Assembly: GCF_004368405.1 (NCBI RefSeq)
Contig: NZ_SBJH01000104.1
Coordinates: 1-60,836 of the forward strand
Direction: 5' to 3'
Origin: Olivibacter sp. XZL3
GTDB lineage: Bacteria; Bacteroidota; Bacteroidia; Sphingobacteriales; Sphingobacteriaceae
Length of the DNA: 60,836 nucleotides
Shown: positions 392 through 60,759 of the stretch, one piece after another
Numbering within the stretch: position 1 is the first letter of the stretch
Layout of the letters: each line of letters begins with the position of its first letter
Position numbers and translations under genes: made by a program
Notes under the pieces: generated by a model
Told to the model about the DNA's origin: nothing
Databases searched by the model: none
The model's input: the letters and a program-made list of their open reading frames with translations, nothing else

Positions 392-1678
392 ATGGTCCAT
401 CGTATTATCGACTGGTCGCTACGCAACCGTTTTGTTGTATTAATTTTGAGCTTAGGTCTTTTTATATGGGGTGTTTTTGCTGTAAAAAAGAACCCGATTG
501 ACGCCATTCCCGACCTTTCTGAAAACCAAGTGATTGTTTTCACCGAGTGGATGGGGCGGTCTCCTCAACTGATAGAAGACCAAGTAACCTATCCTTTGGT
601 GACCAATCTCCAAGGCTTGCCCAAAATCAAGTATGTCCGCGGCAGTTCCATGTTTGGCATGAGCTTCATTTACGTCATTTTTGAAGATGAAGTAGATATA
701 TACTGGGCTCGGGAACGCGTGCTGGAGCGGCTCAGCACAGTCGGAAGGACACTTCCTGAAGGAGCGACGCCCACCTTGGGTCCGGATGGCACAGGAGTTG
801 GCCATGTACTTTGGTACACCTTAGATGCACCGAATATCGACCTGGGTGAGCAACGAGCCATTCAAGATTGGTACGTCAAATTTGCTTTGCAGAATGTTCC
901 GGGCGTCAGCGAAATTGCTTCTTTCGGAGGTTTTCAAAAGCAATATCAAGTGACGATAGATCCTAATAAGCTCCTCTATTACAAACTTTCTGCCGCCGAT
1001 GTGATCAGTGCCATCAGGACCAACAACAATGAAAGCGGTAGACGGAAGTTTGAGATGAGCGATGTTGGCTATATAATTAAGACGAACGGCTACCTGCAAT
1101 CAATCCAGGACATCGAACGTATACCCATCGGCAATCAGCAAGGGAATCCTATTTACGTTTCAGATATTGGTGTCGTGCAAATGACTGGCGAGGCGCGACT
1201 AGGTATATTTGATCAGAACGGTGAAGGCGAACGTGTCGGGGGCATTGTTGTGATGCGTTATGGTGAAAATGCGGCTGCGCTAACCGAACGCGTAAAGGAA
1301 AAAATGAAAGAAATAGCGAGAGGCCTACCGGAAGGAGTCAAATTTGACATTATTTATGACCGGGGTGAATTGATCAAGGAGTCTGTGGATTCCATTAAAC
1401 ATACCCTCATCGAAGAAATGATCGTTGTCTCTCTGGTCGTCATACTCTTTTTATTTCACTGGCGAAGTGCACTGAGTATTATTGTTCAAATTCCGATTAC
1501 CATTGCCATCAGCTTTATTTTATTGAATGCTTTTGATATATCATCCAACATTATGTCTTTAACCGGTATTGCCTTAGCCATTGGGGTCATTGTTGATAAT
1601 GGTATCATCATGAGTGAAAACGCGTACAAGCACCTCGCTGAACGGTATGCCGAAAAACATCCAACAAAAAAAAGATAA
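392..1678 (+). CDS. cusA: CusA/CzcA-family RND heavy-metal efflux pump, N-terminal part (frameshifted)
   Basis: This is the N-terminal 428 residues of an inner-membrane RND transporter that exports heavy metals (Cu+/Ag+ type by its neighbours) with a periplasmic adaptor and a TolC-like channel, driven by the proton gradient. Visible features are the first membrane segment at about residues 13-31, the porter-domain motifs, and transmembrane segments 2-4 ending in VIVDNGIIMSENAYKHLAE. The Asp of that motif (about residue 402) sits where the proton-relay Asp of the family lies. The frame stops in the TM4-TM5 loop, right after an A8 run at 1666-1673. The rest of the protein continues in the +1 frame, so a normal pump of about 1,070 residues is broken by one extra base. 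The annotation is firm. Whether the break is real is open. Confidence 0.93.
   Translation: MVHRIIDWSLRNRFVVLILSLGLFIWGVFAVKKNPIDAIPDLSENQVIVFTEWMGRSPQLIEDQVTYPLVTNLQGLPKIKYVRGSSMFGMSFIYVIFEDEVDIYWARERVLERLSTVGRTLPEGATPTLGPDGTGVGHVLWYTLDAPNIDLGEQRAIQDWYVKFALQNVPGVSEIASFGGFQKQYQVTIDPNKLLYYKLSAADVISAIRTNNNESGRRKFEMSDVGYIIKTNGYLQSIQDIERIPIGNQQGNPIYVSDIGVVQMTGEARLGIFDQNGEGERVGGIVVMRYGENAAALTERVKEKMKEIARGLPEGVKFDIIYDRGELIKESVDSIKHTLIEEMIVVSLVVILFLFHWRSALSIIVQIPITIAISFILLNAFDISSNIMSLTGIALAIGVIVDNGIIMSENAYKHLAERYAEKHPTKKR
1666..1673 (+). other. A8 homopolymer at the cusA frameshift
   Basis: Eight consecutive A residues end the first pump frame: the codons after it read AGA TAA. With seven A residues the reading would pass through K-K-D-N-N-M-S-W into the downstream frame without a stop. 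The run is therefore the exact site where one base must be lost, or skipped by slippage, to give an intact pump. Confidence 0.85.
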
Positions 1679-1682
1679 CAAC

Positions 1683-3617
1683 ATGAGCTGGATAAAAAGA
1701 ATATTCAAACATACATCTCCCTGGATATCAGAAAAGGAACGGATCGAAATTATCGGAAAAAGTAGCAAGCAGGTGAGCCGCGGTGTCTTTTTTGCCACGA
1801 TCATTATCATTACTTCATTCTTGCCCGTATTTATGCTTACCGGTCAGGAAGGTAAGCTCTTTCATCCATTGGCTTTTACAAAGACCTTTATTATGCTTGT
1901 TGACGCTTTATTGGTCCTCACGCTAGCGCCGGTTTTAATATCGTTTTTCATGAAAGGCAAATTCAAACCCGATCAAGCCAATCCCGTCAATCGTTTTTTG
2001 GAAAAACTATATGAACCGATCATACAAAAAGTGCTAACCTGGCGCAAGACCACTTTGGCGATCAACGTACTTGCTTTGCTGATTACCATCCCACTTCTGA
2101 AAAGACTTGGCACCGAATTTATGCCACCACTCGATGAGCAAAGCGTCCTTTTTATGCCTGTCACACTTCCTGACATCAGTAACAGCGAGGCGAAACGCAT
2201 TCTTCAAGTGCAAGACAAAATCATAAAAAGCGTCCCTGAGGTCGATAAAGTACTTGGCAAGGCCGGCAGGGCTAGTACGGCAACCGATAACGCGCCTATT
2301 AGCATGATTGAAACGATCATCATGCTGAAACCTAAGCATCAATGGCGGGACGGAATGACAAAGGATCAATTGATCCAAGAATTAGATAAGAAGTTACAAA
2401 TCCCTGGCGTTGTGAACGGCTGGACGCAACCCATTATAAACCGCATCAACATGTTGGCTACGGGTATCCGCACGGATGTTGGCGTAAAAGTTTTCGGACA
2501 AAACCTAGATACAATTGCTGCCGTTTCGGAACGGGTTAAAAAGGCGTTAGAAGGCACTGATGGAATTCAAGACCTCTACGTGGAACCGGTAACCGGCGGG
2601 AAATATCTAACTGTCGATATAAAGCGTGATGCGCTCGCTCGTTATGGCCTCACGGTAGACGATGTAAATCAAACCGTAGAAAGTATCATCGGTGGAGCAA
2701 CCATTGGCCAAACAATCGAAGGAAGAAGGCGCTTTAGTATTAATATCCGACTTGCGCAAGACTATCGGAATAGCTTAGCTCAACTGAACAGAGTTCCTTT
2801 ACGGAGCAGTTCTTTTGGTGAAGTACCTTTAAGTGCGGTGGCAGATCTCCGATTTGAAGACGGCCCACCAATGATTACGTCGGATAACGCGTTGCTTCGC
2901 GGAGCCGTAATGTTTAATGTCCGCAACCGCGACCTGGGAAGCGCCGTACAAGAAGCTGCTGAAAGACTGAATACTTCCGAAGGCATTTTGCCAACAGGTT
3001 ACTTTTTAGAATGGAGTGGACAATATGAAAATTTAATGCGTGGCCAACAAACGCTTCTGTGGATCACTCCAATTGTGCTCATCATCATCTTTTTTGCTCT
3101 CTATTTTGCCTTCCACTCCCTAAGGGAGGCTTTTCTTAGCCTCATAACTGTACCGTTTGCTCTTATCGGCGGAGCCTATATGATTTATTTCTGGGGCGTT
3201 CATCTCTCCGTCGCCGTGGCTGTCGGCTTTATTGCCCTATTTGGGATCGCCGTAGAAACCGGAATTGTCATGGTTATCTACCTGAACGATGCCATGCTGC
3301 AATTAGTAAAAGAGAAGGGCAACAGCCGTGAAACCATTACTAATAGCGATTTAAGAACTTATGTCATATACGGCGCTGCAAAGAGACTCCGACCAAAGAT
3401 TATGACGGTATGCGTGTCTCTCTTCGGCCTCTTACCGGTGTTATGGGCAACAGGAGTAGGTACAGACGTTATGCGGCCAATTGTTTTGCCAATGATTGGC
3501 GGCGTGCTCACCTCGTCCACTCACATTTTATTGGTTACCCCGCTTATCTTTTTAATGACCAAAGAATACGAATTGCGTACATATGGAAAATTGGAAATTC
3601 ATGACACCAAGCACTAA
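1683..3617 (+). CDS. cusA: CusA/CzcA-family RND heavy-metal efflux pump, C-terminal part (frameshifted)
   Basis: This is the C-terminal part of the pump started at 392, in the next reading frame. It resumes in the TM4-TM5 cytoplasmic loop and continues with ISEKERIEIIGKSSKQVSRG, TM5-TM6, the second porter domain (NRINMLATGIRTDVGVKVFG; RYGLTVDDVNQTVESIIGGA) and TM8-TM12 at the end. The start given is the first ATG in this frame. A GTG at 1614 also opens the frame, but neither is likely to be a natural start, because the product would lack the first four transmembrane helices. The stop overlaps the start of the TolC-like gene, consistent with one operon. Confidence 0.92.
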   Translation: MSWIKRIFKHTSPWISEKERIEIIGKSSKQVSRGVFFATIIIITSFLPVFMLTGQEGKLFHPLAFTKTFIMLVDALLVLTLAPVLISFFMKGKFKPDQANPVNRFLEKLYEPIIQKVLTWRKTTLAINVLALLITIPLLKRLGTEFMPPLDEQSVLFMPVTLPDISNSEAKRILQVQDKIIKSVPEVDKVLGKAGRASTATDNAPISMIETIIMLKPKHQWRDGMTKDQLIQELDKKLQIPGVVNGWTQPIINRINMLATGIRTDVGVKVFGQNLDTIAAVSERVKKALEGTDGIQDLYVEPVTGGKYLTVDIKRDALARYGLTVDDVNQTVESIIGGATIGQTIEGRRRFSINIRLAQDYRNSLAQLNRVPLRSSSFGEVPLSAVADLRFEDGPPMITSDNALLRGAVMFNVRNRDLGSAVQEAAERLNTSEGILPTGYFLEWSGQYENLMRGQQTLLWITPIVLIIIFFALYFAFHSLREAFLSLITVPFALIGGAYMIYFWGVHLSVAVAVGFIALFGIAVETGIVMVIYLNDAMLQLVKEKGNSRETITNSDLRTYVIYGAAKRLRPKIMTVCVSLFGLLPVLWATGVGTDVMRPIVLPMIGGVLTSSTHILLVTPLIFLMTKEYELRTYGKLEIHDTKH

Positions 3618-35281: not shown

Positions 35282-35352
35282 ACCGATATTTCCCCCACGA
35301 CCGCTGAAGGGGAAATATCGGTAATAGTCAGGAATGTCGGAGAAATGCCGAC
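35282..35352. terminator. Two consecutive hairpins after the M14 peptidase gene
   Basis: The first is a perfect 14-bp stem (35282-35295 with 35309-35322) around a 13-base loop. The second is a 6-bp stem (TGTCGG 35335-35340 with CCGACA 35048-type arm at 35348-35353). They sit directly downstream of the minus-strand peptidase operon and upstream of the AraC gene. Neither has a strong T-run, but together they are good candidates for the operon end. Confidence 0.5.
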
Positions 35353-47550: not shown

Positions 47551-47574
47551 GTGCCTGATTTAAAAACCGTGGCT

Positions 47575-48423
47575 ATGAAACATCCATTTCAGACCATTGT
47601 TGCCGAAATCCAAAAGCAGGAAAGAAAATTATCTGCTGGAGCATCCAGCTTTATTGACGAGGCTTTTAAAATGACGGGCTATCTTCAGGAGTTACTGCGC
47701 AGCGTCAAAGAAGATGTGCTGAAAGAAGGTTTTTCAAGCAAGGACGAAGAAATCCACTTTTTCAAATCCATTAAACCTAATATCCTCGGCAAACTCATTT
47801 ATTACAACAAAGTATATCGGATTGAAACGGCTTGCCCTGCGGAAAACGGACATTTACACCAAAGCTATTTTGCTATGCAGCTCCGGGAGCTAAAGCAGGA
47901 ATACCAAGAACATATTTGTAATTCTGAATTTTACAGGTACTACCGTTCCGGCAGAACCGACCGGGATGAAAATTATTATATGCTCGGTAACATCAACTAC
48001 TATGACGGGCTAAATAGCTTCGTGTTTGAAATTGACCCTAACTTCTCTACCTACTTCGATTACAAGGTGGCAAAAATCATTGCCAACGAACTCATCTATA
48101 ATTACCTCACCACAAAATTAAGCCCTGAACAAAGCCCCGATATTCTGTTGCAGGACAGCGACACCAAAGATATTTTTTGGACACAGACAAAGAATGCCCT
48201 TATTGAATTGATTTATGCGCTCCATGCCGCCGATGCCATTTCACACGGTAAATTGGGCATTCGCAAAATCAGCATGGTCTTTCAAATCCTGTTCCGAATT
48301 TCCCTCAATGACATACACAACAGCTTTCACCGGATGAAAACCCGTGCAGGCTCCCGCACTTTGTTTTTAGACCAACTCAAATACAGTTTGGAGGAATATA
48401 TGGATAAAGAGGACAATCAATAA
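47575..48423 (+). CDS. rteC: RteC-family regulator of conjugative-element excision
   Basis: A 282-residue cytoplasmic protein with the RteC domain. Visible family segments are KDEEIHFFKSIKPNILGKLI, then YRYYRSGRTDRDENYY, FDYKVAKIIANELIYNYL, and the C-terminal winged-helix-like part ending LEEYMDKED. In CTnDOT, RteC binds upstream of xis2c and switches on the excision operon. Here it is directly followed by such an operon on the same strand, after a strong terminator. The ATG at 47575 is preferred over a GTG at 47551. Confidence 0.88.
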   Translation: MKHPFQTIVAEIQKQERKLSAGASSFIDEAFKMTGYLQELLRSVKEDVLKEGFSSKDEEIHFFKSIKPNILGKLIYYNKVYRIETACPAENGHLHQSYFAMQLRELKQEYQEHICNSEFYRYYRSGRTDRDENYYMLGNINYYDGLNSFVFEIDPNFSTYFDYKVAKIIANELIYNYLTTKLSPEQSPDILLQDSDTKDIFWTQTKNALIELIYALHAADAISHGKLGIRKISMVFQILFRISLNDIHNSFHRMKTRAGSRTLFLDQLKYSLEEYMDKEDNQ

Positions 48424-54067: not shown

Positions 54068-54502
54068 ATGAGTACACAGCAAAAAGACCTCTCTTATTTT
54101 ACGCTAAGGTTACAGGAGTTACTGAACACCAGCTTCCCCGAAAAAGCAAGCGACAAACAATTTATCGAGCAACGCTCCAAGTGGGCGGCAAACGCCTACG
54201 AGGGTGCATTCCGTTCGGGAAACCCCATTGAGCAGTGTGACCATATCGCAGATTATATACTCTTTGAGGGGCTTTACTATTCCAAGTTCGACACCGTATT
54301 TCAAGTGGTCTGCAACGAGTTTAACAGCATCATGTTAGACGAGGAATTGCGCCCATTCGCATTAAAGATGCTCCCTATATGCGAACCCGTATTTGCCAAA
54401 TACGTGCTGACGGATGACTTTGCCTATACCACCGACCACGACCTGCTCTATACGGAGATTACCGGAACCATAGCCATTCATATCGAGGACTATGGCATTT
54501 AA
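54068..54502 (+). CDS. DUF1896-family conjugative-element protein
   Basis: A 144-residue soluble protein matching DUF1896, a family found in Bacteroidota conjugative elements next to the methylase-helicase gene. Visible conserved parts are YFTLRLQELLNTSFPEKASD, RSKWAANAYEGAFRSG and FDTVFQVVCNEFN. The function is unknown. The ATG at 54068 is chosen over a TTG at 54044. Its end overlaps the next gene by 11 bases. Confidence 0.82.
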   Translation: MSTQQKDLSYFTLRLQELLNTSFPEKASDKQFIEQRSKWAANAYEGAFRSGNPIEQCDHIADYILFEGLYYSKFDTVFQVVCNEFNSIMLDEELRPFALKMLPICEPVFAKYVLTDDFAYTTDHDLLYTEITGTIAIHIEDYGI

Positions 54503-56786
54503 TCAACGTGAACACCTGAAGCAGAATATTGAGGCGTTGCGGGTTATGTTCAGGTTGGAAAAGGAAAAACGCCAAGCTACCGAAACCGAACGGCAGCAGC
54601 TTTTGCTGTACAGTGGTTTTGGCGGGCTGAAATTCATCTTAAACCCCGCAGCGCATCCGGTAGATATAAAGCAATGGAAAGACTACGAACGAACCTATTT
54701 TGAGGAAACGCAGGAACTCCACCGGGTACTGAAAGAAAATGCCGGAGACGAAAGGCAATACAAACGCTACGTGGACAGCCTGCGCAGTTCGGTACTCACG
54801 GCGTTTTATACCCCGCCCGAAATTATCAATACAATATCCGATGTATTCAAAGAAAATGGGATTGCGATACAAAAGTTTTTGGAGCCATCGGCGGGTGTTG
54901 GTGGGTTTATCCAGTCTTTTACAGATAAGAGCGTACCACAGGTTACGGCTTATGAAAAAGACCTGCTGACGGGTAAAATCCTTAAACAGATATACCCTGA
55001 CAGGAATATCCGCATCAGCGGTTTTGAAGAAATATCCGAAAGGGAGCTGAACAGCTATGATGTAGTTGCCAGCAATATCCCATTTGGCACAAGTTCGGTC
55101 TTTGACCTTTCCTATTCACGGGGCAATGACCCTGCAAGGGCGCAGGCAGCAAGGGGCATCCACAACTACTTTTTCCTAAAGGGAACCGATACGTTACGGG
55201 ATGGTGGTATGCTCGCTTTCATCACCTCACAGGGCGTACTGGATAGTCCAAGTAACAAGCCTATCCGTGAGGCATTGATGAAAGAACATAACCTTGTTTC
55301 GGTGGTACGGTTACCGAACAATCTCTTTATGGATTACGCCGGAACCGAAGTCGGAACCGACCTTATCGTACTCCAAAAGAACATGGGCAAACAAGGTCTT
55401 TCGGAATTGGAGAAAGATTTTTGCAACACCCAATTGACCAAGCATAACGACCATTTGAATGATTTTGTGTATTACACCTCTCCGGTTGTCTTCAATCAAA
55501 TCATACAATCTACTGACCTGTACGGCAAACCCTATACCGTATATGTGCATGATGGCGGTATAGCCGAAATTGCAAAGGAAGCGAAGAAAATATTGTCTGC
55601 CGATTTTAAAGACAATTTAAACCTGAACCTTTACAAAGGGCTTTCGCCCGATGAGCCTGCGCTACAATCGGATATTACCCCCACACCTGACCCTACACCC
55701 ACACAGCCGGCTAAGGAGATAGTCAGGGAGGAAATACCGCAACCCGCATCGCTCAATATCTCAACTCCTGTAACGACTCAACCGACAACGAGCCAACCAC
55801 AGCCAAGCATGACGGTGGTTGCAGATACACCGTCAATGCAGGAAGAAGTACAGTTGAGTTTGTTCGACCTTTTTGGCGCACCACAGGCAACAGTAATTGA
55901 CCTGCCGAAAAAGGTCAGGATAAGAACGACCGTTACCAAGAAAAAAGCGGTCAACCGCCCGCAACAACCGGGGTTATTTGATTACATCCCCTTGCGTACA
56001 CCAAAAGAGGAAACGCCCAAGCCTCCTGCTACACCTCGGACAAACGAACGCCCGACCGAAATCGGCGATTTGTTTTCGGCTATCGGCATTAATAGTAAAG
56101 GGGAAATTGAGGATATACCCAAAAAAGAACCTGCTCCCGTTATTGATACCATACTCCCCGAACCTGCGCCGTACTCCGGCGAACTCCAATCATTCCACAG
56201 GGATGATTGCCTTGTGGTGGATAAGGGTTTTGTCGGGCATTTGCGGGATGTAGATTTAGAAAACAATTCAGCGGTATTTCACCCGCTATCATTGCCACCC
56301 AATCAGAAAGGTAGAACCGAAGCCTATATAGGTCTAAGGGATGTTTATCAGCGACTCTATAGTCAGGAAGCGCAATTTCATACCGAACATAAAGAAGAAC
56401 GGAAAACGCTGAACAGCCTCTATGATGACTTTGTAAAGAGATACGGCAACCTGAACAGTGCCGATAATATCAAGCTCATCAAGACCGACAGCGCAGGCAA
56501 GGAAATACCCTACTTGGAACGTGTGGTGGGCGGTGTAGTGCATAAGGCTGATATATTCCGCCAGCCTGTAAGTTTTTCAACCGCAACACTGGCAACAGAC
56601 AACCCGGACGAAGCATTGGCGGCATCGCTCAATAAGTACGGAACGGTGGATTTGGGCTACATGTCGGAGATAAGCGGAATGTCCGGCGAGGATTGTAAAA
56701 GATGCGCTGCATGGCCGCATCTTTTACAATCCTGTACAAAAGCAATACGAGATTGCCGAAAAATGGGTTTCGGGCAATGTGGTTGA
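54492..56786 (+). CDS. N6-adenine methylase / SNF2 helicase giant protein, N-terminal part (frameshifted)
   Basis: First part of a protein that would be about 1,860 residues long if intact. Methyltransferase motifs are visible: [13 protein letters not shown] (SAM-binding motif I) and SNIPFG (the NPPY-type catalytic motif IV). A Pro/Thr-rich linker follows (about residues 390-560). The frame is correct up to SGMSGEDCK at 56691-56699, after which the reading becomes meaningless and stops at 56786. Downstream residues resume in the next frame at about 56701. The break sits inside a perfect inverted repeat. In intact form the protein is thought to methylate and remodel element DNA; its exact role is not known. 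Confidence 0.88.
56690..56732. repeat. Perfect 17-bp inverted repeat spanning the frameshift
   Basis: The left arm (56690-56706) and right arm (56716-56732) are exact reverse complements over 17 bases, with a 9-base spacer. Removing any one base from the left arm restores the protein frame (C-K-[N or D][10 protein letters not shown]) and makes the repeat imperfect. Confidence 0.9.
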
Positions 56787-59700
56787 GAAAGCCGCAGAGG
56801 TACAGGCATACCTTGCCGGACAACCGGAAGACAAAGAAGCTGCGGAAAGCCTTAAAGCCCTCGAAGAAGCCAAGCCCCGCAGGATAGGGTTTGAAGAACT
56901 CGATTTTAACCTCGGCGAACGCTGGATACCTACGGGTATCTACAACCGTTTTGCATCACACCTGTTCGATACGGACGTCCGCATTCATTATTCCGAAAGT
57001 TCCGATGATTTTTCTATCCATTGCGACCGTAAGAATATCCATATCTCCGAAAAATATGCTATCAAATCCGAAAGCCGGACGTTTGACGGCATTAACCTGT
57101 TGAAACACGCCCTTGTCAATACCACGCCTGACATCACCAAAAAGGTAATGGTAGATGACAGGGAGGTCAAGGTGCGGGATATGGAAGCCATACAGATGGC
57201 GAACACCAAAATTGACGAGATACGCAGAGAGTTTTCGGACTGGCTCTTTGCGCAGAACGATGAATTTAAGCAACGGCTGACCGATAAGTACAACGACACC
57301 TTTAACTGTTTTGTTCGTCCGCAATATGACGGCAGCCATCAGGAGTTTCCGGGGCTTGACCGCAAGGCGTTGGGTATCGAAGACCTGTACCCAAGCCAAA
57401 AGGATGCCGTTTGGATGATTAAGATGAACGGCGGTGCTATCTGCGACCACGAAGTGGGTGCAGGTAAAACGCTCATCATGTGTACGGCGGCACAGGAAAT
57501 GAAGCGTTTGGGGCTGGCGCACAAACCGATAATCATCGGCTTAAAAGCCAATGTGCATGAGATAGCGGAAACCTACCGCAAAGCCTATCCCCACGCCAAA
57601 ATACTATATCCCGGCAAGGAAGATTTTACACCAAAGAAACGCCTGCGCATTTTCGGGGATATAAAAAACAACGATTGGGATTGCATCATCTTAACGCATG
57701 ACCAATTCGGAATGATACCGCAATCGCCCGAAATGCAAAAGCAGATATTGGAGGCAGAACTGGAAAGCGTGGAAGATAACCTTGTCGCTTTGGAAGCGCA
57801 GGGCAAGGAAGTTTCAAGAGGGATGCTCAAGGGGGTCATTGTCCGTAAACAGAATTTAGAGGTTAGGTTAAAAACGCTGGAGCATGACATCGAAAACCGT
57901 AAGGATGATGTTGTGGACTTTAAAATGATGGGCATTGACCACATTTTAATGGACGAAAGCCACCGTTTTAAAAATCTCATGTTCAATACGAGGCACGAGC
58001 GTGTAGCGGGATTGGGCAATATGGCAGGCAGCCAAAAAGCATTGAACCTACTATTCGCCATCCGCACCATACAGGAGCGTACCGGCAAAGACCTGGGCGC
58101 AACGTTCCTTTCCGGTACGACCATTAGCAATTCGCTTACGGAACTGTATCTGCTCTTTAAATACCTGCGCCCAAAGGCAATGGAAAAACAGGGCATCAAC
58201 TGTTTTGATGCGTGGGCTGCCATTTACGCCCGTAAGACCACCGACTATGAATTTTCGGTGGCGAACAACATCGTATCAAAAGAACGCTTCCGCTTCTTCA
58301 TCAAAGTGCCGGAACTGGCGCAGTTCTATTCGGAAATTACGGACTACCGGACAGCAAAGGATATTGGCATAGACCGCCCCGAAAAGAACGAGATACTCTA
58401 CCATATCCCGCCCACACCGGAGCAGGAGGTTTTCATCCAAAAGCTAATGGAGTTTGCCAAAACGGGCAAAGCCGAACTTTTGGGCAGACCTCCGCTAAGC
58501 GAAAGTGAGGAAAAGGCAAAGATGCTGATTGCGACAGACTACGCCCGTAAGATGTCGCTGGATATGCGGATGATTAGCCGGAAGTACGAAGACCATCCCG
58601 ATAACAAAGCCTCGCATTGTGCGGCAAACCTTGCTAAATACTATAACAAATACAATTCACAGAAAGGGACGCAGTTCGTTTTTTCCGACCTCGGCACTTA
58701 CAAGCCCGGCGAATGGAATGTCTATTCTGAAATCAAGCGCAAGCTGGTGGAAGACCACGGCATCCCTGCACATGAGATACGGTTTATTCAGGAAGCTAAA
58801 AACGAAAAGCAACGTAAGGAACTCATCAGGGATGTAAACGAGGGTAAAATACGGGTGCTGTTTGGCTCTACCGAAATGCTCGGTACAGGTGTGAACGCAC
58901 AGAAACGGGCGGTTGCCGTTCACCATTTGGATATACCGTGGCGACCCTCAGACCTTGCCCAAAGGGATGGCAGGGCTATCCGTAAAGGCAATGAAATTGC
59001 TAAATTCTTTGCAGATAATATGGTAGATATTTTTATTTATGCGGTGGAGAAATCGCTGGACAGCTACAAATTCAATACGCTGTATAATAAGCAGGTGTTT
59101 ATCGAACAACTCAAAAGCAACAGCCTCGGCAAACGTACCATTGATGAGGGTGGTATGGACGAAAAAACGGGTATGAATTACTCCGAATACGTGGCAATAC
59201 TTTCGGGCAATACAGACCTTTTGGAAAAGGCGAAACTGGAAAAACAAATTGCCGGACTGGAAAGCGAACGGCAGGCGCACAACCGCTCCAAACTCACTTC
59301 CAAATACAGGCTGGAAGATGCTGTGGCTACATTGGAAAGTACACAATCACGTTTTGACCGTATGAGCCTTGACCTCGAAAACCTGCAAAAGCGTATTCAG
59401 AAAAACAAGGACGGGGAAATGCTTAATCCTGTACAGCTTATCGGGCTTTCACCGAATGCCGATGTAAAACAGATTGGCGCAAAGCTCAACCAGCTTTCCG
59501 AAAAAGCCCGTACCGAAGGGCAATATGAGGAAATCGGTACGTTGTATGGTTTTACGCTCTTAGTGAAAACGGAAGTCTCTAAAAAAGACGGCGTGAATAT
59601 TAAGGACAACCGCTTCTTTGTACAGGGGGAGGGCAATATCAAGTACACGTTCAATAATGGCAGAATGGCGACCGATGCAAAAACGGCATCGCTCAACTTC

Positions 59701-59997
59701 CTGAATGCCCTTGAAAAGATACCCCGTATTTTGGAGCAGGAGCAAAAGAAAATCACGGAATTGCAAAAAGACCTGCCTGTTCTTCAGGAAGTGGTGAACG
59801 GCACATGGAAGAAAGAGCAGGCATTAAGCGACCTTAAAACGGAACTGGCGGCTGTTGAAAGAAAAATACAGCTATCTATCAAACCGGATACAGAAACTTC
59901 GGCTGGACAATCCGAGAAAGTTGAAAAGCAAAGTCAACATAATTCGGAGGCGATTGTACGGGTTAAAGGCGTTCATTTACCTCGTGGTGTGCTGTAA
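56779..59997 (+). CDS. N6-adenine methylase / SNF2 helicase giant protein, C-terminal part (frameshifted)
   Basis: The continuation of the protein that starts at 54492, in the next frame. The coding sense resumes at about 56701; the GTG at 56779 is only the first possible start. SNF2/superfamily-2 helicase motifs are complete: [13 protein letters not shown] (Walker A), [11 protein letters not shown] (DExH box), [10 protein letters not shown] (motif III), [11 protein letters not shown] and [11 protein letters not shown] (motifs V and VI). A coiled coil (about residues 825-880) and a C-terminal tail follow. If translated alone, the product would be a helicase without its methylase. Confidence 0.88.
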
Positions 59998-60066: not shown

Positions 60067-60759
60067 CTACTTTTCGTCCTGCTCGTCCATTCTCCGTATC
60101 AGTTCCTCACGAAGTGCATCAAGAAATTTCGTGCGGTTCATCTTCCGGCTTCGCAATTCCAAATAAGTCTGGTAGAAATTACCTAAGTTAATATTAAAAG
60201 TGCTTTCGAAATATTTGGCTATCAATCGTATATCGGTGTTCCCGTTGTCGAATACCCCCTGATAATACAACGCATAAACCAACTCTATCAATGCTACCTT
60301 ACTACCCGTCCACTTGAGATTTGGCGGGGTCATCAATTTGTTCCCCTGTGATTTGTTATATAGCTGGCCTTCAAGATACACCTGTATCATATCGTTGGCA
60401 ATAATCTTGGCAACCTTATAATCGTGTGAGGTGGAAAAGCTGTGGTCGGCTTCAAAATAAAAAGTGTCCAAGCTTAATTTGATGTCGTGTTTGCCCCGAA
60501 CAAAATATTTATGGTCTAAATAGGTACTGTTTGTCCTGTAATATTTATAAAATTCCAGGTTATTGTCAAAGAATCGCTTTAGCTTCTCCAACTCTTTATG
60601 CAGGTATTTCCTGAGAGTTTTCTCGCATCCAAATGGCTTTTTTGTCTCAATTTTGAATATGGCATTATAGTAGATAAGTTTAGAAAGTATTTGAGGCTTT
60701 AGGCATTTAAAAAAATATATTTCTTCTTCATCATTTTTAAATCTTCTTTCTAAAATCAG
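60067..60759 (-). pseudogene. Second RteC-family gene, N terminus lost
   Basis: The minus-strand frame encodes an RteC domain: upstream of the TTG at 60591 the same frame still reads EEEIYFFKCLKPQILSKLIY and KTLRKYLHKELEKLKRFF, which align with the first RteC (EEIHFFKSIKPNILGKLIYY). Later segments are FYKYYRTNSTYLDHKYF and HDYKVAKIIANDMIQVYL. About 55 residues at the N terminus are missing and no in-frame ATG exists. The homology ends at about 60760, where a different sequence with features of an insertion-sequence end begins. It diverges clearly from the first RteC, so it is a paralogue and not a recent copy. Confidence 0.72.

What the first reader, a model, noticed from the sequence alone, without database searches (positions are those of the whole stretch)
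56690..56732. Frameshift that completes a perfect 17-bp inverted repeat: templated mutation
The methylase-helicase frame breaks by one extra base inside the left arm of a perfect 17-bp inverted repeat. Restoring the frame by deleting one base in that arm necessarily makes the repeat imperfect. This is the expected product of quasipalindrome correction, where the polymerase switches template onto the other arm during replication. It gives a direct mechanism for inactivating a conjugative-element gene.
Basis: partly seen in the sequence, partly recalled or inferred. Interest (0 to 1): 0.7.

Follow-up and report, generated by a model that had tools for sequence, protein, structure and literature searches.

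The report
Template-switch frameshift in mobile-element gene
One extra base splits a mobile-element gene in a bacterium, and comparison with unbroken relatives shows that it turned an almost perfect hairpin into a perfect one, the known signature of DNA polymerase briefly copying from the wrong strand.

Summary
The perfect inverted repeat is 18 bp (56689-56706 / 56716-56733); 0 of 100 shuffled windows reach 16-bp arms. The methylase-helicase frame breaks inside its left arm. All 117 relatives' loci whose alignment spans the site have one base fewer. The extra base aligns at 56695, between two Ts, so it is no homopolymer slip, and it is what the other arm would template. In L034's gene 1 of 19,975 single-base indels gives a perfect repeat of 16 bp or more, at this site; odds are weaker for L037 and absent for L036. 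Quasipalindrome correction by template switching is the best explanation. "Inactivation" is not shown: both enzymatic domains lie outside the break, a GTG-started helicase frame overlaps the methylase stop, and both halves show the constraint seen among intact relatives. Reads were unavailable, so an in-vitro hairpin artefact remains possible. Known mechanism; a clean natural example.

The parts
54492..56786 (+). 5' part of the methylase-helicase gene: about 733 codons in the ancestral frame, then about 31 out-of-frame codons to a stop
   Evidence: (N6_Mtase PF02384, residues 104-299)
56779..59997 (+). 3' part of the same gene, other phase: helicase half, GTG start overlapping the upstream frame's end by 8 nt
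   Evidence: (Helicase_C PF00271, SNF2-rel PF00176)
56689..56706 (+). left arm of the perfect 18-bp inverted repeat; holds the frameshift
56707..56715 (.). 9-nt spacer, same letters in relatives L034, L036 and L037 (no spacer inversion)
56716..56733 (+). right arm, presumed template for the change; same letters as in intact relative L034
56695..56695 (+). place of the base that the window has and 117 of 117 spanning relatives' loci lack; position by alignment to the nearest relatives
47551..48423 (+). RteC-family gene of the same element (context)
   Evidence: PF09357
50962..53043 (+). type IA topoisomerase of the element (context)
   Evidence: PF01131
54044..54502 (+). DUF1896 gene just upstream (context)
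   Evidence: PF08989

Best explanation
The frameshift is a quasipalindrome correction. The ancestral gene had, by coding accident, two nearly complementary segments about 9 nt apart, the right arm one base longer than the left. During DNA synthesis the growing strand switched for a few bases onto the other arm as template and switched back, copying in one base. The repeat became perfect and the reading frame was shifted by one. If the switch was the nascent strand folding back on itself, the change in the left arm implies that the strand complementary to the coding strand was being made (inference). The present state, the near-repeat in sister lineages and the match of the extra base to the opposite arm are shown; the exact ancestor, the polymerase event, its strand and its timing are inferred.
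For: Perfect 18-bp repeat, chance excluded. Extra base absent from 117 of 117 spanning relatives' loci. In a screen of the 122 loci are in one frame without a stop across the site, 3 are copies of the window and 2 viral loci matched on one side only. Near-repeat with the same one-base gap in the nearest clade: 16, 15, 14 matched positions against 8-13 in 67 other distinct segments. A protein tree of the window and 22 chosen relatives places the window inside that clade (6 rows, 100/100; sister L037, 98/92). Of 19,975 single-base indels in L034's gene, 1 gives arms of >=16 bp and it is at the observed site; over 72 distinct intact genes 3 of 1,413,809 do, one of them this site. The extra base lies between two Ts, so no run or neighbour explains it. 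Single-strand DNA fold: -11.8 (L034), -9.5 (L037), -5.7 (L036), -18.9 kcal/mol (window).
Against: L036, the relative closest in DNA identity over this stretch (89%), has the poorest near-repeat of the clade (14 matched), and 0 of 19,987 single-base indels in its gene reach even 12-bp arms. In L037, the sister in the tree, the observed site gives 15-bp arms and the only indel reaching 16 lies elsewhere. The nearest relatives are far away (dS about 0.64-0.99), so the immediate ancestor is inferred and further substitutions in the arms are possible. No reads were seen, and no second genome with the allele was found.
Confidence: 0.8

Rival explanations
1. Laboratory artefact: the same templated copying happened in vitro (end repair or amplification at the hairpin) or in the assembly, and the living gene is intact.
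For: Library preparation is reported to create indels at gaps and mismatches of imperfect inverted repeats in human targeted sequencing (PMC10908179, passages). The gene looks healthy: no other frameshift in the covered part of the window and normal constraint on both halves. Draft assembly of 122 contigs.
Against: Those artefacts are described as low variant-allele-frequency calls, whereas a consensus base should need a majority (inference). The assembly shows no other frameshift in 47,546 covered window bases; the split CusA frame in the window is also split in relatives, so it is not an error.
Confidence: 0.12
2. Ordinary random one-base insertion that by luck completed the repeat.
For: Single-base insertions do occur outside runs (recalled); the near-repeat already existed in the clade.
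Against: 1 of 19,975 single-base indels in the L034 gene has this result, 3 of 1,413,809 over 72 genes.
Confidence: 0.03
3. A functional arrangement: the split makes two separate proteins by translational coupling, or a programmed frameshift at the hairpin makes the fusion.
For: Overlap of 8 nt with GTG start; both domains intact on either side; dN/dS of both halves against three relatives (N 0.127-0.142, C 0.041-0.053) is like that among those relatives (N 0.135-0.139, C 0.036-0.055).
Against: Among the 122 loci, 117 are in one frame across the site and the rest are window copies or one-sided, so it is not a conserved recoding site. A recent mutation also explains the constraint. The hairpin derives from coding sequence in relatives. 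A Chryseobacterium glaciei plasmid copy is annotated in pieces, but its helicase CDS begins about 690 nt upstream of the place that matches the break, and it lacks the extra base, so it is no precedent for this split.
Confidence: 0.05

Closest known systems
Quasipalindrome-associated template-switch mutation in E. coli (PMC7202029: abstract and passages seen)
   Same: An imperfect inverted repeat becomes perfect or more perfect and the reading frame changes; the E. coli lacZ reporters use an 18-bp quasipalindrome, about the size seen here.
   Different: Laboratory reporters with a designed 4-bp frameshift whose removal is selected; here a natural one-base gain in a conjugative element, read from comparison only.
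Quasipalindrome correction in bacterial genomes (van Noort et al. 2003, not read; seen only in the reference lists of PMC10434271 and PMC6060812 and in a sentence and reference of PMC7023247)
   Same: Same process, reported for bacteria.
   Different: Recalled as a genome survey; here one disruption of a mobile-element gene with its intact relatives.
Arm homogenization by template switching in yeast coding genes (PMC8604942: abstract and outline seen)
   Same: Phylogeny used to show that one arm was copied onto the other in coding DNA.
   Different: There substitutions of several bases; here one base and a broken frame, without spacer inversion.

Membership tests
Quasipalindrome correction (template-switch mutation) | Ancestor carries an imperfect inverted repeat at the site | tested here: met
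   Nearest clade matches 16, 15, 14 arm positions with one gap; other 67 distinct segments 8-13; clade support 100/100. The immediate ancestor itself is inferred
Quasipalindrome correction (template-switch mutation) | Mutation makes the repeat more perfect and its sequence is given by the other arm | tested here: met
   18 of 18 in the window; site matches the completing indel of L034
Quasipalindrome correction (template-switch mutation) | Not explained by slippage or duplication of the neighbouring base | tested here: met
   Extra base differs from both neighbours
Quasipalindrome correction (template-switch mutation) | Present in the DNA of the cell, not only in the sequencing library | not testable with these tools
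   No reads available; indirect support only
Quasipalindrome correction (template-switch mutation) | Dependence on replication strand and nucleases | not testable with these tools
   Needs genetics
CTnDOT-like Bacteroidota conjugative element | Neighbouring RteC, DUF4099/DUF3945, topoisomerase IA, DUF1896 and N6-methylase-helicase genes (feature list recalled) | tested here: met
   Pfam matches in this order; DUF3945-topoisomerase-DUF1896-methylase order also in Bacteroides fragilis record NZ_OR675140.1 (RteC not in the stretch shown)
CTnDOT-like Bacteroidota conjugative element | Integrase, transfer genes, attachment sites | not tested
   Not looked for; they may lie on other contigs of this draft
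Programmed frameshift site | Frame break conserved among homologues | tested here: not met
   117 of 117 spanning relatives' loci lack the extra base; 117 of 122 loci open across it

The most novel reading that the evidence does not exclude
One template-switch event split a fused methylase-helicase into two proteins that are both still made, through the overlapping stop and GTG start, and both still selected: a domain fission created in a single step by a hairpin, possibly while the element was single-stranded during transfer.
Probability: 0.1. Interest if true: 0.55.

Novelty: new member of a known kind. Interest (0 to 1): 0.35.

Why it matters
It is an unusually clean natural case in which the imperfect repeat survives in sister lineages, so the mutation can be assigned to template switching with explicit odds instead of by resemblance. 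It also suggests that hairpins arising by accident in coding sequence can break genes of mobile elements.

Tried and rejected
Random insertion (odds) and homopolymer slippage (extra base differs from both neighbours): rejected. Programmed frameshift: rejected as a conserved feature. A generally error-rich assembly: not supported by the frameshift screen, which covered 47,546 bases and used ORFs of selected relatives only. CusA at the window's left end first looked like a second frameshift, near an 8-A run; relatives carry the same split with open frames of 434-470 aa (alignments seen for two genomes), so it was dropped as evidence of error. Search for the same allele: the exact 16-mer in viral contigs gave 31 stretches, 0 of 31 with the whole repeat. 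The genome scans gave no second copy of the allele among the loci that span the site, but only part of their matches became loci (in one search the best 80 of 383; the best ones), and of the plasmid hits only H16 was aligned at the site (H23 was fetched but did not align there). Spacer inversion: none in L034, L036, L037. One search failed on my own coordinate error and was redone. Searches for print on natural cases in bacteria listed no paper whose title or abstract start concerns such a mutation in a conjugative-element gene; one search listed 12 of 154 papers, and most subscription papers are not in that library. One search (function of the gene) listed 10 of 15 papers; none was opened.

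Full report
Setting. The window is one whole contig (C106, 60,836 bp) of a 5.36-Mb draft genome in 122 contigs. Two same-family matches lie on contigs whose lengths equal those of named records (G364:C7, 348,730 bp, Pedobacter nutrimenti; G351:C2, 913,634 bp, Sphingobacterium detergens), so the host is inferred to be a member of the Sphingobacteriaceae; its habitat is unknown. The right part carries RteC, DUF4099/DUF3945, topoisomerase IA, ORF6N, DUF1896 and a methylase-helicase gene. The DUF3945-topoisomerase-DUF1896-methylase part of this order is also in a Bacteroides fragilis plasmid record. Of 9 window proteins scanned with NCBIfam, 0 reached a drug-resistance cut-off among the families shown; the CusA halves and a DHA2-type transporter scored below the cut-offs shown (25 of 52 families shown for the latter).

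Observation. Arms 56689-56706 and 56716-56733 are perfectly complementary over 18 bp with a 9-nt spacer. It is the only perfect repeat of >=16 bp (spacer <=50) in the window, and 0 of 100 shuffles reach 16 bp. The methylase frame (54492-56786) and helicase frame (56779-59997) meet in different phases here.

Comparison. Of the 122 loci are in one frame without a stop across the break, 3 are the window itself and 2 viral loci matched on one side only. At the end, of 231 held loci that are not window copies, 125 had a hit and 117 spanned 56660-56760; 117 of 117 have 100 bases where the window has 101 (116 of 116, before plasmid stretch L234 was added). Several loci are copies of one element: the 116 give 70 distinct segments. 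Eight loci with a hit that does not span were dropped. For 3 loci (L078-L080) the aligner put the gap just outside the repeat.

Ancestor. The protein tree of the window and 22 chosen relatives (20 different rows in all) puts the window in a six-row clade (100/100) with L037 as sister (98/92), beside L036 with L033-L035 (98/93). Those intact relatives carry a near-repeat with one base missing from the left arm: L033/L034/L035/L127 match 16 positions, L037 15, L036 14. The other 67 distinct segments match 8-13. The near-repeat therefore belongs to this clade and, by parsimony, preceded the insertion. Result against: L036, closest by DNA identity over this stretch (89%), has the weakest near-repeat.

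Odds. Of 19,975 distinct single-base indels in the L034 gene, 1 yields arms of >=16 bp (spacer <=50), and it is at the observed site; in L037 the single one of 19,989 is at another site and the observed site gives 15; in L036 0 of 19,987 reach even 12 bp. Over 72 distinct genes from L033-L112 (80 loci, longest open frame of each at least 1,777 codons) 3 of 1,413,809 reach 16 bp. The extra base differs from both neighbours, so slippage is no explanation. Single-strand DNA folding energies run -5.7 (L036), -9.5 (L037), -11.8 (L034), -18.9 (window) kcal/mol.

Mechanism. The template-switch model says that polymerase stalls in a quasipalindrome, copies for a few bases from the nascent strand and returns, making the repeat more perfect (PMC7202029, abstract and passages; intra- and intermolecular forms in PMC3820800, passages). 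The window fits. The spacer has the same letters as in L034, L036 and L037, so the switch left the spacer as it was. If it was intramolecular, the strand complementary to the coding strand was nascent (inference).

Consequence. The methylase domain (residues 104-299 of ORF 1) and the helicase matches (444-737 of ORF 2) lie away from the break, and a GTG start overlaps the upstream frame's end by 8 nt. Pairwise dN/dS of both halves against three relatives is like that among those relatives (N 0.127-0.142 against 0.135-0.139; C 0.041-0.053 against 0.036-0.055), and no other frameshift was found in the 47,546 covered window bases. So the split is recent, or both parts still serve, or the base is an artefact. 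The genome also holds a related gene on contig C48 with a 1,812-codon open frame, which might cover for a loss (inference). A Chryseobacterium glaciei plasmid copy is annotated in pieces, with breaks elsewhere.

Artefact. Library preparation can produce indels at imperfections of inverted repeats, reported as low-frequency calls in human samples (PMC10908179, passages). A consensus error is less likely but cannot be excluded without reads.

Verdict. A well-supported natural quasipalindrome correction in a conjugative-element gene; the mechanism is known, and the claim of inactivation is open.

Noticed in passing
window 392-1678 and 1614-3617: CusA/CzcA metal-efflux gene is split into two open frames. 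In five of six genomes searched with the first half (G052, G063, G037, G015, G364) the best match has an open frame of only 434-470 aa, so the split is a shared arrangement and not an error; the sixth (G351) had only distant matches.
   Followed up: partly
L123 (G000:C48, 11,412 bp): A second methylase-helicase gene in the same genome, about 75% identical over the compared stretch, with an open frame of 1,812 codons, probably from another element.
   Followed up: partly
   Followed up: no
window 60067-60591 (-): At the contig's right end a frame that looks by eye like a second RteC-type regulator; not searched against families.
   Followed up: no
window 35282-35322: 14-bp perfect inverted repeat in the gap between two minus-strand open frames, perhaps a terminator; not tested.
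   Followed up: no
L037, about 817 bases upstream of the site: Another near-repeat in the same gene of Sphingobacterium detergens that a single base would complete to 16 bp.
   Followed up: no
L189 14473-14537: 27-bp perfect inverted repeat with 11-nt spacer elsewhere in this genome, outside open frames of 300 codons or more.
   Followed up: no
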